Shown: piece after piece, positions 1,679 to 8,912 of the stretch
Numbering within the stretch: the first letter of the stretch is position 1
How the letters are laid out: each line of letters begins with the position of its first letter
The notes under the pieces: generated by a model
Told to the model about the DNA's origin: nothing
Database searches by the model: none
Seen by the model: only the letters and a program-made list of their open reading frames with translations
Source: Candidatus Bathyarchaeota archaeon
Lineage (GTDB): Archaea; Thermoproteota; Bathyarchaeia; Bathyarchaeales; SOJC01
Direction: 5' to 3'
DNA: 12,874 nucleotides
Assembly (NCBI GenBank): GCA_030641425.1
Contig: DAOWHM010000072.1
Span: forward strand, 1-12,874
Position numbers and translations under genes: made by a program

Positions 1679-2797
1679 ATGCGAACGCGGACAATCCGAG
1701 TCTTGACAGTTACCATTGGGTTTATTGTCACAATGTTGCTCTTCACACACGGTTACGCACAAAATTTTGAACAAGAGTATCTCTTGTATGATGGTCAAAC
1801 TACGTTTCAACTTACACTATCAATCACTCCCGAGCTTCACGAGCATTACCTGCAGAAGAGCCATCAGCTTACTCAAGGAAATTTCGGGAGTTTTGTAACC
1901 CCTTATTCGCTAGAACTAGTTGCATCAGACATTAGAAGCATTTCTACTGGTGAAGAAAACTTCGTAAATCTGGTCCTCATGATTGTCCATCAGCTACCAT
2001 ATGAAATAGTTGAAGAAGCTAAGTATCCTGTGGAAACAATCATCGATAACAAGGGAGACTGTGACTGCTTCTCGTTTTTTGCAGCATCGTTGCTGAAGGC
2101 CGAGGACTTCGATGTTGTGCTTTTGTACTATGAAGAGGAAAGTCACATGAACATCGGAGTGCATTTGCCTCAGCCTCCTACGGAAGCACGTACACCGATC
2201 TCTTACGTGGACTACATGGGAACTCGATATTATATGGCTGAGTGCACCGGTGAGGACTGGCAGAATGGTTGGAGAGTTGGTGAACGTCCCCCGGAGCTTG
2301 AAGATGCGCAAGTAACAGTCGTAACATTGGAAAACTATGAACAGATCGCCCCAGGTCGGGTTTCCTCAAGCTTTGGAAGTCTTGAAGACTCGGCAATATC
2401 CCTGACTATTCCTTCAAACTTTGTAATAGAAGGGGTTCCACTTGTTATGAATGGTCAGGTTTCCATTCCCAATTCCGGAGGAACCGTTACTCTGTACGCC
2501 GGAGTCGGAAACAGCTGGTTCTCTATCGGAACAGTGGATTTGGACTCAAACGGGCGATTCTCACTTACATGGATTCCTACAGCATGGGGGCAATATTTCC
2601 TGAAAGCAAGTTGGTCTGGAAATGACGAATATGCTGGTGCCGACAGCCAGTTCATCTCCATCTACGTTATCCCTGAAATCCTAGTTTTTCTCGTAGGTGC
2701 TCTGCTTATGACAACAATTGTTTCAGTTACAGTAATCTTGATGTATAAAACTACACATTACCAAGAAACACAAGTTCTCGAAGCGGCTCCTGAATGA
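1679..2797 (+). CDS. Secreted, membrane-anchored transglutaminase-like protein with Ig-like domain
   Basis: The 372-residue product has an N-terminal hydrophobic signal segment (about 6-26), an extracellular region, and a C-terminal transmembrane helix (about 332-355) followed by a short cytoplasmic tail. Residues 95-200 look like a transglutaminase/cysteine-protease fold: GDCDC supplies a nucleophilic cysteine (C128 most likely), SHMNIGVHL a histidine (H156 or H162), and YYMAECT an acid (E188). Residues about 240-330 form a beta-rich Ig-like domain (VIEGVPLVMNGQV, then TLYAGVGNSW and GRFSLTWIPTAWGQY), a type common in archaeal surface proteins. It therefore probably acts on the outer face of the membrane, as a peptidase or amidase or as a crosslinking enzyme; the substrate is unknown. 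The start is the first in-frame ATG before the hydrophobic segment; the only upstream purine run (GAAGGA) is too distant to decide it. It stands alone between two long intergenic gaps. Confidence 0.75.
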   Translation: MRTRTIRVLTVTIGFIVTMLLFTHGYAQNFEQEYLLYDGQTTFQLTLSITPELHEHYLQKSHQLTQGNFGSFVTPYSLELVASDIRSISTGEENFVNLVLMIVHQLPYEIVEEAKYPVETIIDNKGDCDCFSFFAASLLKAEDFDVVLLYYEEESHMNIGVHLPQPPTEARTPISYVDYMGTRYYMAECTGEDWQNGWRVGERPPELEDAQVTVVTLENYEQIAPGRVSSSFGSLEDSAISLTIPSNFVIEGVPLVMNGQVSIPNSGGTVTLYAGVGNSWFSIGTVDLDSNGRFSLTWIPTAWGQYFLKASWSGNDEYAGADSQFISIYVIPEILVFLVGALLMTTIVSVTVILMYKTTHYQETQVLEAAPE

Positions 2798-3649: not shown

Positions 3650-4105
3650 CTACACAACATAATAGTCAACCACTTTTTGCATGCGTTTTGGACCCATTTT
3701 TCTACTTAACTTCTTAAGCAGACGAATCATTTGCGGTTGACAACGGGCAAGATCGGTAAGGGTAACTAATCCTTTAAGCTGTCCATTTTTAACAACTGGA
3801 AGCTTCTTGATTTTCATTCTAAACATTAGTTTTGCCGCTTCTTCCAAATCCATCTCTGGTTCCACAACGATAATTGGCTTTGACATCACAGATGATACTT
3901 TGACTCTTCTAGGACTTTTTGCCTGGCTGATAATTCTCTTCAGCATATCTCGCTCCGTTAAAATGCCAACAGCCTTACCATCTTTAGTTGCAATGAGACA
4001 ACCGATCTCAAATTTGTTCATAATATCCGCTGCTTCCTTTATAGTGGATTTTTCATCAACGGTGATTACTTCCTTCACCATTATGTCTTCAATTCTTAGT
4101 GGCAT
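3650..4105 (-). CDS. Protein with tandem CBS domains
   Basis: The 151-residue product consists almost entirely of two CBS motifs forming one Bateman module. The first covers about residues 5-60 (IEDIMVKEVITVDEKSTIKE to GILTERDML), the second about 70-122 (VSSVMSKPIIVVEPEMDLEE to GLVTLTDLA). A basic C-terminal helix follows. Such stand-alone modules bind adenosine ligands (AMP, ATP, SAM) and act as energy or metabolite sensors; the partner cannot be read from the sequence. I prefer the ATG at 4105, which begins MPLRIEDIM. It lies about 38 bp below a TATA-like CTTATATT on this strand (4140-4147) and follows a GGTTGGGA stretch. A TTG at 4135 would add ten residues but is too close to the TATA box. 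The gene is divergent from the flavoprotein gene. Confidence 0.88.
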   Translation of the reverse strand: MPLRIEDIMVKEVITVDEKSTIKEAADIMNKFEIGCLIATKDGKAVGILTERDMLKRIISQAKSPRRVKVSSVMSKPIIVVEPEMDLEEAAKLMFRMKIKKLPVVKNGQLKGLVTLTDLARCQPQMIRLLKKLSRKMGPKRMQKVVDYYVV

Positions 4106-4139
4106 ATGTTCCCAACCATTTCTAGTATTCCACAACAGG

Positions 4140-6447: not shown

Positions 6448-7104
6448 TCAGCTTTTCCTTTTGGAGATATTTCGACCCAGTCTTTGAGCGATTTTTATAG
6501 CTGAGCTGATATCCCTTTTCCCTCTCCTCTGGGGAGTCTTTCCCAAGGATTGACTTGTTCCTTCCTCGCTTACTATTTCAAACGTTACGTCTCTCTGATG
6601 GTTGTTGAGGTGACATAGGAGTTCTTCAGCAATCGATGGGATCCCATCGCCAACCCTAACAGTTTTGAAGGCAGCAGGTATCCTTTTCAGTATGCCATCT
6701 ACAACTTTCACAGTTTCAGCCACGCTAAAACAGTTTTTCGTCTCGATTAAACTCTTATCTCCAAGAACTGCAACACCGAAACTTGAACCCGGGTCGATTC
6801 CGATCACCAAATGTTCGTATGACTCTCTTCCTTTAACCAGTCTAATCGCTTCTTCAACTATCTCCACAGGATTTGCATCTTCCGCATATTCTAACGTATT
6901 TTGATGGTTGATTCCAGACCCCTCCTCCTTTGTGGTTATTACGACCTTGATGTATACTGGAATTTCATCGTTGGGCGTTAAACTTATGAAAGATTCCCCT
7001 CTTTTTCGAAGTTCGTTCACTAGCAGATAGTAAGCTTTCCCAGATACAGTCGCAACGGCAATCCTCGGATTCTTTGTTTCGTCCTTTCGAGTTGGCTTAG
7101 TCAA
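6448..7104 (-). CDS. RuvC/RNase H-fold protein, possible nuclease
   Basis: The 218-residue product has an N-terminal domain of about 95 residues that I do not recognise (RIAVATVSGKAYYLLVNELR). A RuvC-like RNase H-fold domain follows. The first strand and loop, LVIGIDPGSSFGVAVLG (99-115), closely match the opening of RuvC (ILGIDPGS) with catalytic Asp D104. Other acids fit the fold order: D153 in VRVGDG, E180/E181 in VSEEGTS, and D198 in KRDISSAIKIA, which recalls the C-terminal DAADALAIA of RuvC. The second aspartate of that RuvC motif is a serine here (S201), so activity is uncertain. The start appears to be TTG at 7104, with no good Shine-Dalgarno and a TATA-like box about 30 bp upstream. 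It is divergent from radB. A role in Holliday junction or other nucleic-acid cleavage is inference; a non-catalytic RNase H-like protein is the alternative. Confidence 0.75.
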   Translation of the reverse strand: MTKPTRKDETKNPRIAVATVSGKAYYLLVNELRKRGESFISLTPNDEIPVYIKVVITTKEEGSGINHQNTLEYAEDANPVEIVEEAIRLVKGRESYEHLVIGIDPGSSFGVAVLGDKSLIETKNCFSVAETVKVVDGILKRIPAAFKTVRVGDGIPSIAEELLCHLNNHQRDVTFEIVSEEGTSQSLGKTPQRRGKRDISSAIKIAQRLGRNISKRKS

Positions 7105-7159: not shown

Positions 7160-7855
7160 TTGCCCCAAACAATTCCAACAGGCTGTGGTTCTCTAGATGA
7201 ACGGTTGAAAGGTGGATTGCGAAGGGGAAATATTGTGTTAGTTTACGGTGAGGCTGAAACAGGAAAAACTACTTTGGCGATTCAGTGCTCAGTCAACTGT
7301 GCAAGAATGGGCTACAAGACAATATTCATAGATTGTGACAACACTTTCTTCGCCAGACGTATGGCACAAATAGCCTCAGGGGACTTTGATGAATTGGCGA
7401 CACAGATAATCTTGATGAGACCCCAAAATTTTAATCAACAAGCTTTTGTCATCGATAGGCTGGCAGAATATGTAGGTGAGAAGGTTGGGCTCATCGTAGT
7501 TGACACTATTACAGGCTATTACCGCGAAGAACTCAGCGGCAATATGACGAGGACTTTGAAGCTGAATCGTGAACTGAATCGTCAAATGGCATGTCTTGCA
7601 CAAATTACTAGAGCTAAGAACGTGGCAAGCCTTATTGTGAGTCAAGTTAGAAGTGTAGTTTTTGAGAATGCAGATGTAACTATGCAACCTGTCGCAATGA
7701 GAGTTATGAAGTTTTGGGCAGACACAGCTATTAGTATTTGGCCTACAACAGAGTCCGACAAAATCAGAGTTAATGTAGAGATGCGTTCCAAAAAGAGAGT
7801 TAAACCTACACTCTTAAAAATCGCAGAAAAGGGGTTACAGGACTATAGAAAATAG
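7160..7855 (+). CDS. radB: RadB-type RecA/Rad51 family ATPase
   Basis: The 231-residue product is a single RecA-fold core without the N-terminal helix-hairpin-helix domain of RadA, which is the layout and size of archaeal RadB. RadB is a Rad51 paralogue thought to assist recombination and repair. The opening IPTGCGSLDERLKGGLRRG is typical of the RadA/RadB/KaiC group. Walker A is GEAETGKTT (30-38), Walker B is LIVVD (111-115), and SQVRS at 161-165 follows where Rad51-family proteins have the L1/L2 region. A KaiC-like single-domain ATPase is the main alternative. The start is a TTG at 7160 right before the conserved PQTIPTG, about 25 bp after a TATA-like box. It is divergent from the RuvC-fold gene and 27 bp ahead of the CDP-archaeol synthase gene, probably cotranscribed with it. 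Confidence 0.85.
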   Translation: MPQTIPTGCGSLDERLKGGLRRGNIVLVYGEAETGKTTLAIQCSVNCARMGYKTIFIDCDNTFFARRMAQIASGDFDELATQIILMRPQNFNQQAFVIDRLAEYVGEKVGLIVVDTITGYYREELSGNMTRTLKLNRELNRQMACLAQITRAKNVASLIVSQVRSVVFENADVTMQPVAMRVMKFWADTAISIWPTTESDKIRVNVEMRSKKRVKPTLLKIAEKGLQDYRK

Positions 7856-7882: not shown

Positions 7883-8377
7883 ATGTCGCTTGAGATAATT
7901 GTAGATTCCCTCCTGTATATCTTTCCCGCCTATAGTGCCAACGCTATCCCTGTAATCTTCGGGGGAGGTTCACCATTAGATTTTGGGAGAACTTTCAAAG
8001 ACGGACGACCTATCTTTGGCTCTCACAAAACCTTCAGGGGATTCTTTGCGGGATTAGCGGTTGGAACTTTGGTCGGTTTGGGAGAAAGCTTCGTCTTCAC
8101 GTCTTACAACCCTCTGTTAGGCTTTTTGCTCTCATCAGGCGCATTATTGGGAGACCTCGCTGGTGCATTTGTCAAACGCAGAATTGGTCTTAATCCAGGT
8201 GCTTTCATGCCCGTAATTGATCAAATAGACTTTGTGTTAGGCGCACTTCTTTTCTCTCTTCTCCTTGCTCCACCCTCGCTCATCATGGCTTTTATCATAC
8301 TAGCTTTCACAATACCCATACATCTTCTAACAAACCTCTTGGCGTATCTGCTGAAAGCAAAGAACAAACCATGGTGA
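7883..8377 (+). CDS. carS: CDP-archaeol synthase (CTP:2,3-di-O-geranylgeranyl-sn-glycero-1-phosphate cytidyltransferase)
   Basis: CarS transfers CMP from CTP to the unsaturated archaeal ether lipid precursor (digeranylgeranylglyceryl phosphate), making CDP-archaeol before polar head groups are attached. The 164-residue product has the family hallmarks in order: FPAYSANAIPVIFGGGSPLD (14-33), FKDGRPIFGSHKTFRG (38-53), GALLGDLAGAFVKRRIGL (86-103) and PVIDQIDFVLGAL (110-122). The last two carry acidic metal-site residues D91, D113 and D116. About five hydrophobic stretches (6-26, 54-72, 76-96, 117-130, 132-157) indicate an integral membrane enzyme. A strong AGGAGG (7863-7868) lies 14 bases before the ATG at 7883, a longer gap than usual. 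No other start fits the conserved N-terminus. It probably shares an mRNA with radB. Confidence 0.95.
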   Translation: MSLEIIVDSLLYIFPAYSANAIPVIFGGGSPLDFGRTFKDGRPIFGSHKTFRGFFAGLAVGTLVGLGESFVFTSYNPLLGFLLSSGALLGDLAGAFVKRRIGLNPGAFMPVIDQIDFVLGALLFSLLLAPPSLIMAFIILAFTIPIHLLTNLLAYLLKAKNKPW

Positions 8378-8419: not shown

Positions 8420-8854
8420 CTATCCTTGAAAGGGTTCAATGGTACCTGGAAAAAGAAAGAATTCGATGATACCCCATCCAATAAGAAATAAAACAATACC
8501 GATCAGAAGCCAAGTAAACGCTTCTCTAGGCCTATAGACATACTTTGTGCTTCGATACACCACTATCAACCCTACAACACCAATTGAATACAAGACCATC
8601 GATGCAATACTTTCACCAAGAAGTTGATCGTTCAAAGCTTGAGGATAGTAAGGTATGATCCTACCGCCGCTGACAAACGCTACTATTGGCTGCTCTAGAA
8701 TATCATAAATCCCTCCTCCAAGCAAGAAAATAGAAGCACCTATAGCCAAACTAGCCAAAAGAAGCGTAGAAGGTTTTAGAGTCAGAAGTCTCCAGTAAGT
8801 TTTCTGGAGATAATAAGAAACTGAAGATGCACTTCTCCTAGCCCTGCGGGACAA
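8420..8854 (-). CDS. OSTC/DC2-like membrane protein (oligosaccharyltransferase subunit family)
   Basis: The 144-residue product has a basic N-terminus and three predicted transmembrane helices (about 30-53, 81-101 and 113-134), the size and layout of human OSTC/DC2 (149 residues). By eye, from memory of OSTC, two blocks match. FLLGGGIYDILEQPIVAF at the end of helix 1 matches FLITGGIIYDVIVEPPSVG. LLGESIASMVLYSIGVVGLI, then VYRSTKYVYRP and LLIGIVLFLIG, match [23 protein letters not shown] with its third helix. OSTC links the STT3A oligosaccharyltransferase to the translocon in animals. Here it may assist the single-subunit AglB, which is inference. The start is a TTG at 8854, with an in-frame TAG directly before it and AGGAG ten bases upstream, so it is well supported. 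It is convergent with carS, 42 bp apart. Confidence 0.75.
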   Translation of the reverse strand: MSRRARRSASSVSYYLQKTYWRLLTLKPSTLLLASLAIGASIFLLGGGIYDILEQPIVAFVSGGRIIPYYPQALNDQLLGESIASMVLYSIGVVGLIVVYRSTKYVYRPREAFTWLLIGIVLFLIGWGIIEFFLFPGTIEPFQG

Positions 8855-8912
8855 ACTACTTGTCGCTCCTAAGATTGAGCATACACTTCTTACCTATATG
8901 CATTCCCTTAAT

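What the first reader, a model, noticed from the sequence alone, without database searches (positions are those of the whole stretch)
8420..8854. Archaeal membrane protein resembling OSTC/DC2, a eukaryotic oligosaccharyltransferase subunit
Three membrane helices, 144 residues, and two blocks (GGGIYDIL and ESIASMVLYSIGVVGLIVVYRS) parallel OSTC at the same positions. Archaeal N-glycosylation is usually thought to need only AglB. An OSTC relative would suggest a multi-subunit or translocon-docked archaeal enzyme. The start (TTG with in-frame TAG and an AGGAG) is well supported.
Basis: partly seen in the sequence, partly recalled or inferred. Interest (0 to 1): 0.75.

Follow-up and report, generated by a model that had tools for sequence, protein, structure and literature searches.

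The report
Archaeal OSTC-like oligosaccharyltransferase subunit
This gene of an uncultured archaeon encodes a small membrane protein that is a true relative of OSTC, a helper part of the human machine that attaches sugars to proteins, and gene-content patterns suggest that many archaea build a multi-part version of that machine rather than a single enzyme.

Summary
The ORF is real (window 8420-8854, minus strand, 144 aa, TTG start) and is a genuine relative of the OSTC/OST3-OST6 subunits of eukaryotic oligosaccharyltransferase. The protein alone finds OSTC as its only PDB match (1.7e-6). A profile of 70 archaeal relatives, with no eukaryotic row, finds OSTC (1e-15) and MAGT1 (8e-10); the next chain is at 0.37. 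The predicted fold ranks OST-complex chains first, at moderate scores. It is the short form without a thioredoxin domain. The family is in 132 of 250 Thermoproteota genomes and 109 of 119 genomes of a Heimdallarchaeota-centred (Asgard) phylum sample, nearly always with AglB/STT3. Where both positions could be read it lies within 10 kb of AglB in 60 of 120 and 28 of 105 genomes, inside an old block of mostly unrelated genes. It also co-occurs with an unlinked ribophorin I (Ost1) homologue: 97 of 100 genomes. The window's own genome has all three genes. Most likely it is an accessory subunit of a three-part AglB complex; docking to SecYEG is plausible but untested. Novelty is limited: a 2024 paper already states that TACK and Asgard archaea have OST1 and OST3/6. 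The linkage and co-occurrence I did not find in the searches made.

The parts
8420..8854 (-). OSTC-like subunit gene, 144 aa, TTG start, three membrane helices (30-45, 76-105, 109-134), basic N-terminus
8866..8870 (-). AGGAG, putative ribosome-binding site 11 nt upstream of the TTG start
   Evidence: sequence read directly
8612..8626 (-). Codons of Q77 to E81, the Q-x3-E motif that aligns with QYIME of OSTC and QFVAE of MAGT1
   Evidence: Q77 invariant in A1, at least 90% in A2; Q and E both invariant in the divergent set A5
7883..8377 (+). CarS, CDP-archaeol synthase; conserved neighbour in the ancestral block
7160..7855 (+). RadB-like RecA-family gene (TIGR02237 135 bits, below its cut-off of 172); conserved neighbour in the block
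6448..7104 (-). DUF460-like gene (PF04312 21.6 of 28 bits); conserved neighbour in the block

Best explanation
The gene encodes an accessory, non-catalytic subunit of the archaeal oligosaccharyltransferase: a member of the OST3/OST6-OSTC membrane-domain family in its short, thioredoxin-less (OSTC-type) form, and probably the orthologue of the Asgard OST3/6. Shown: sequence relationship, a matching predicted fold, mostly single-copy conservation across Thermoproteota and the Asgard phylum sample, co-occurrence with AglB/STT3 and with an Ost1/ribophorin I-like protein, and an old gene block shared with AglB. Inferred: it sits with its N-terminus inside and C-terminus outside the cell membrane, packs against the AglB membrane domain through the conserved face around G47, G48, Q77 and E81, and together with Ost1 (outer domain, one membrane helix, cytosolic helical domain) makes a three-subunit enzyme. 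More speculative: as OSTC/DC2 does for STT3A, it may hold AglB next to SecYEG so that chains are glycosylated while being translocated.
Confidence: 0.82

Rival explanations
1. Same family and fold, different job: a stand-alone membrane protein (for example a SecYEG-associated factor, or a transporter of the kind once proposed for MAGT1) that does not bind AglB.
For: No physical data; gene-positive genomes without a detected STT3: G042 and 4 of 109 in the Asgard sample; conserved neighbours are mostly unrelated to glycosylation.
Against: The gene tracks both STT3 (131 of 132) and the unlinked Ost1-like gene (97 of 100); the only significant PDB matches of the A2 profile are OST subunits.
Confidence: 0.1
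2. Synteny hitch-hiker: the gene lies near AglB only because both sit in an old housekeeping block, and it belongs with CarS/RadB rather than with AglB.
For: RadB and CarS are frequent neighbours in Thermoproteota (57 and 40 of 85 stretches) and appear in several Asgard-sample loci.
Against: Homology to OST subunits is independent of position. The presence pattern follows Ost1, which is within 10 kb of this gene in only 1 of 97 genomes.
Confidence: 0.05
3. Chance resemblance between three-helix membrane proteins; the true family is something else (DUF6962 is the next Pfam match).
For: The window protein's own Pfam scores are weak for both (OST3_OST6 E=0.016, DUF6962 E=0.025). No Foldseek match passes 0.001.
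Against: At family level 43 of 43 match OST3_OST6 (best 1.8e-9) against 15 of 43 for DUF6962 (best 2e-4). In the PDB only OST chains are significant.
Confidence: 0.02

Closest known systems
OSTC / DC2, STT3A-specific subunit of human OST-A (PDB 6s7o_H, 8b6l_J, 9n9j_J)
   Different: Archaeal; 25-26% identical in the structural alignments of these chains; outer loop about 5 residues shorter; docking to Sec61/SecY not tested.
OST3/OST6, MAGT1, TUSC3 (PDB 6s7t_H MAGT1; 6ezn_C and 8agc_H of yeast OST, taken as Ost3/Ost6 by inference)
   Different: No N-terminal thioredoxin domain; 144 aa against 335 in the MAGT1 chain.
Asgard OST3/6 (reported in PMC11417166, PMC10307638, PMC8813620; passages seen)
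   Same: The same profile finds it in 109 of 119 genomes of the phylum sample around a Heimdallarchaeota genome; short architecture; same gene block in most of the loci mapped. Probable orthologue; I did not compare with the published accessions.
   Different: Most of the Asgard-sample sequences aligned carry a KPRLKL...P-type N-terminus that extends the match to OSTC (from residue 12 instead of 28), and EG instead of ES after the Q.
Single-subunit archaeal AglB (as in the 2020 review PMC7226087, passages seen)
   Same: Same catalytic subunit, WWDYG motif in the window's genome.
   Different: The review calls archaeal OST monomeric; here two non-catalytic homologues accompany it.

Membership tests
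OST3/OST6-OSTC membrane-domain family (PF04756, C-terminal half) | Significant sequence similarity to characterised family members | tested here: met
   OSTC 1.7e-6 from the single sequence; family profile OSTC 1e-15, MAGT1 8.1e-10, next unrelated 0.37
Pfam model PF04756 (a cut-off of the 294-position model, which includes the thioredoxin half; not a biological feature) | Curated score cut-off reached by the window protein alone | tested here: not met
   15.1 of 27 bits; a 74% identical relative, P0061, carries PF04756 in its precomputed annotation
OST3/OST6-OSTC membrane-domain family (PF04756, C-terminal half) | Three-helix membrane domain with the OSTC/Ost3 fold | tested here: met
OST3/OST6 proper (Ost3, Ost6, MAGT1, TUSC3) | Lumenal thioredoxin domain fused before the membrane domain | tested here: not met
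   144 aa, first membrane helix at 30; in the Asgard sample, open frames are mostly 120-220 aa, one 336, fragments of 79 and 56, two weak extra matches in frames of 458 and 463
OSTC/DC2 | Closer to OSTC than to OST3/6 by descent | tested here: inconclusive
   Profile scores favour OSTC (61.0 against 41.9 bits; 55.5 against 17.7 with the Asgard-sample profile) but no tree was built
OSTC/DC2 | Binds the catalytic STT3 subunit | not testable with these tools
   only genomic association:
OSTC/DC2 | Links OST to the Sec61/SecY translocon | not testable with these tools
   no complex modelling available
Multi-subunit oligosaccharyltransferase | Catalytic STT3 plus at least one further OST subunit homologue in the same genome | tested here: met
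   own genome: STT3 on C10, Ost1-like on C52, OSTC-like on C19
Multi-subunit oligosaccharyltransferase | Ost2/DAD1, Ost4, Ost5, Wbp1, Swp1 subunits | not tested

The most novel reading that the evidence does not exclude
A three-subunit, ribosome- and SecYEG-docked co-translational oligosaccharyltransferase (AglB + Ost1 with its cytosolic domain + OSTC-like) existed before Thermoproteota and Asgard archaea diverged, is still the rule in Bathyarchaeia, and was stripped back to AglB alone in other lineages; OST3/OST6 arose later when a thioredoxin domain was fused to this OSTC-type core.
Probability: 0.35. Interest if true: 0.78.

Novelty: new member of a known kind. Interest (0 to 1): 0.52.

Why it matters
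A 2020 review describes archaeal oligosaccharyltransferase as the single protein AglB (PMC7226087, passages). A conserved OSTC-type subunit that goes with AglB and with an unlinked ribophorin I homologue, in a gene block shared by two archaeal phyla, says that the eukaryotic OST core is probably older than the Asgard lineage, and gives defined gene sets for testing what accessory subunits do without the rest of the eukaryotic complex.

Tried and rejected
PF04756 on the own genome hit only a thioredoxin-like ORF on C8 (L001, with a CGPC motif), unrelated to the finding; the same model rings in 5 of 14 control genomes, so I used family profiles instead.

Whether gene-negative lineages hide a diverged copy beside STT3: I listed predicted membrane ORFs up to 260 aa in 13 loci, seven of them STT3 neighbourhoods of gene-negative genomes (L131-L136, L148), and saw no candidate by eye. 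This is weak: the ORF picker discards overlapping ORFs, and in the same listing it missed the real gene in L144 (G303), which one search finds. The same picker made the gene maps, so missing genes there mean little.

G018 seemed to lack STT3: wrong, its STT3 is cut by a contig end; G042 remains an exception. G342's match was dropped from the 133 because it has four stops. G185, negative, carries the gene by local hmmsearch but stays negative in the counts. Twelve of 132 gene-positive genomes were left out: ten because their STT3 position was not in the capped listing, G018 and G042 because one search gave no match. A1 used 42 of the 50 loci plus the window; A7 used 9 of the 13 Asgard-sample loci; I cut the N-terminus of four rows (L038, L112, L115, L119) by choice of coordinates.

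The first structure job (pLDDT 68.6) was superseded. With the Asgard-sample profile, TACAN channels score 0.003 and MAGT1 only 0.025; I treat TACAN as a chance match. DUF6962 was set aside. No tree of OSTC against OST3 was built. Euryarchaeota were not sampled.

Literature searches. No listed title or abstract start, and no passage I looked at, mentions linkage of this gene with aglB or its co-occurrence with Ost1 beyond the statement that both occur in TACK and Asgard archaea; most hits were seen as listings only and the library is open-licence only. The supplement of PMC11417166 (its Table S1) was not available to me.

Full report
Observation. The ORF lies at 8420-8854 on the minus strand and gives 144 aa from a TTG. 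An in-frame TAG is 14 codons upstream, TTG is the first ATG/GTG/TTG after it, and AGGAG stands 11 nt before it. Close relatives have a start codon at the aligned position (where the nearest start was picked). The window is the whole of contig C19 of a 1.0 Mb, 79.5% complete genome. By name its nearest public relatives are Candidatus Bathyarchaeota MAGs.

Homology. One-sequence phmmer against the PDB returned two hits up to E=10, both OSTC (1.7e-6, 2e-5). A profile of 43 near relatives (A1) gave the two OSTC sequences (6.1e-12, 3.8e-11) and nothing else below 0.46. A profile of 70 members from across the phylum (A2), again without any eukaryotic row, gave OSTC 1e-15 and 1.7e-14, MAGT1 8.1e-10, then 0.37. 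All 43 A1 members match Pfam OST3_OST6 at E<=0.1, best 1.8e-9, against 15 of 43 for the runner-up. The window protein alone stays below Pfam's cut-off (15.1 of 27 bits). Invariant in A1 are F43, G47, G48, Q77, G95, Y100, G119 and E131. Q77 and a glutamate four residues on (E81) align with QYIME of OSTC and QFVAE of MAGT1.

Architecture. There is no thioredoxin domain. In the Asgard sample the open frames are mostly 120-220 aa, with one of 336. The archaeal protein is therefore OSTC-like in build, not OST3/6 proper. Profile scores also lean to OSTC (61.0 against 41.9 bits; 55.5 against 17.7 with an Asgard-sample profile). No tree was built.

Distribution. Found in 143 of 151 near relatives, own genome counted; 93 of 250 phylum genomes with A1 and 133 of 250 with A2, of which one (G342, four stops) is dropped, leaving 132. 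Named protein hits also include Caldarchaeum, Nezhaarchaeota and Calditenuaceae. STT3 is in 227 of 250 and 111 of 119. Counting G018, whose STT3 is cut by a contig end, 131 of 132 gene-positive Thermoproteota genomes have STT3 against 97 of 118 gene-negative (Fisher p about 1e-6, not corrected for ancestry); the exception is G042. In the Asgard sample 105 of 109 gene-positive genomes have STT3, against 6 of 10 gene-negative, one of those weak.

Linkage. For 120 of the 132 genomes both positions were listed; 76 have both on one contig, 60 within 10 kb (55 divergent, 4 same direction, 1 convergent; 19 of 35 family labels), and 22 within 1.5 kb, all divergent. In the Asgard sample, 105 genomes have both positions, 38 on one contig, 28 within 10 kb (21 same direction, 7 divergent). 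Chance would be of the order of 1-2% per genome (my estimate from genome size). Gene maps show an old block: DUF460, RadB, CarS, this gene, a small gene and TopA, GcvT/GcvH, STT3, Nop10, aIF2-alpha; TopA, GcvT, GcvH, aIF2-alpha, Nop10, PAC2 and Clp1 labels rest on one representative each. The RadB label comes from single-linkage clustering and may include RadA. In the window's genome the block is split: DUF460-RadB-CarS-OSTC-like on C19, and the small gene-TopA-GcvT-STT3 on C10 (L130). The shared block makes the window gene a probable positional orthologue of the Asgard OST3/6. Because most of the block is unrelated housekeeping genes, I do not treat linkage alone as evidence of joint function.

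A third subunit. Ribophorin I (PF04597) is found in 31 of 121 phylum genomes, 26 over cut-off, and in none of 14 control genomes. The own-genome protein (L164:1366-3111, 581 aa) scores 30.2 bits against a cut-off of 25; of the seven such proteins scanned, six match PF04597 and one (L168) does not, although the genome search had reported it. A profile of the seven hits human ribophorin I (2.3e-21), the MK-D1 OST1 cytosolic domain 8whn (1e-18) and yeast Ost1 (4.4e-11). With that profile 120 of 250 genomes match at E<=1e-3, a number of them only by the C-terminal cytosolic/coiled region. At E<=1e-8, 97 of 100 Ost1-positive genomes have the OSTC-like gene, against 35 of 150 others; of the three exceptions G185 does carry it. 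Ost1 is on the same contig as this gene in 19 of those 97 genomes and within 10 kb in one, so this association does not come from synteny, though it is not corrected for shared ancestry.

Mechanism. In humans DC2 (OSTC) binds STT3A, MAGT1 binds STT3B, and DC2 with KCP2 links OST to Sec61 (PMC7226087, passages). The MK-D1 OST1 cytosolic domain binds ribosomes (PMC11417166 section 7, read whole). By analogy the archaeal protein is a membrane subunit packed on AglB. With an Ost1 whose profile covers that cytosolic domain, a translocon-docked enzyme is possible. Binding and docking are inferred, not shown.

Known and new. PMC11417166 states that OST1 and OST3/6 occur in eukaryotes, TACK and Asgard archaea (passage). 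PMC10307638 and PMC8813620 report Asgard subunits (passages), and PMC5222938 cites OST3/OST6 in Lokiarchaeota (passage). A 2016 HMM search found no promising prokaryotic homologues of non-catalytic subunits (PMC4973528, passage). So membership is known in outline. The AglB block and the genome-by-genome Ost1 co-occurrence I did not find in the searches listed under Tried and rejected. I file it as a new member of a known kind.

Noticed in passing
G000:C52:9865-11607 (L164:1366-3111): Ost1/ribophorin I-like protein in the window's genome, next to a histone-deacetylase-family gene (PF00850, 309 bits); a similar gene is adjacent in L169 and L170 (judged by eye).
   Followed up: partly
G000:C10 (L130:6927-9125): The window genome's AglB/STT3 (732 aa, WWDYG at 534) sits with a small gene, TopA and GcvT: the other half of the block that elsewhere includes the window gene.
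   Followed up: yes
G363, G448, G433 (Asgard sample): Two or more OSTC-like copies in some genomes (G363 at 3203034 and 2801398; G448 two in tandem on C46); G433 also has two STT3 hits, one directly divergent from an OSTC-like gene. Possible parallel to the OSTC/OST3 paralogy of eukaryotes.
   Followed up: no
L036:5076-5309 and 22 relatives (cluster c7): A small (about 70-90 aa) protein with an N-terminal CxxC...CxxH-type motif, often between TopA and the OSTC-like gene in the block; no Pfam match at E<=0.001.
   Followed up: partly
window 1679-2797 (+): Protein of 372 aa with an apparent signal peptide, an Ig-like domain (PF16640, 33.6 of 35.5 bits) and a C-terminal hydrophobic stretch: a possible surface protein and AglB substrate.
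   Followed up: no
window 3650-4135 (-): Probable CBS-domain protein, judged from many below-cut-off NCBIfam matches to CBS-containing families.
   Followed up: no
G042: Single-contig, 92% complete genome of the window's order with the OSTC-like gene and an Ost1-like gene but no STT3 match in two searches.
   Followed up: partly
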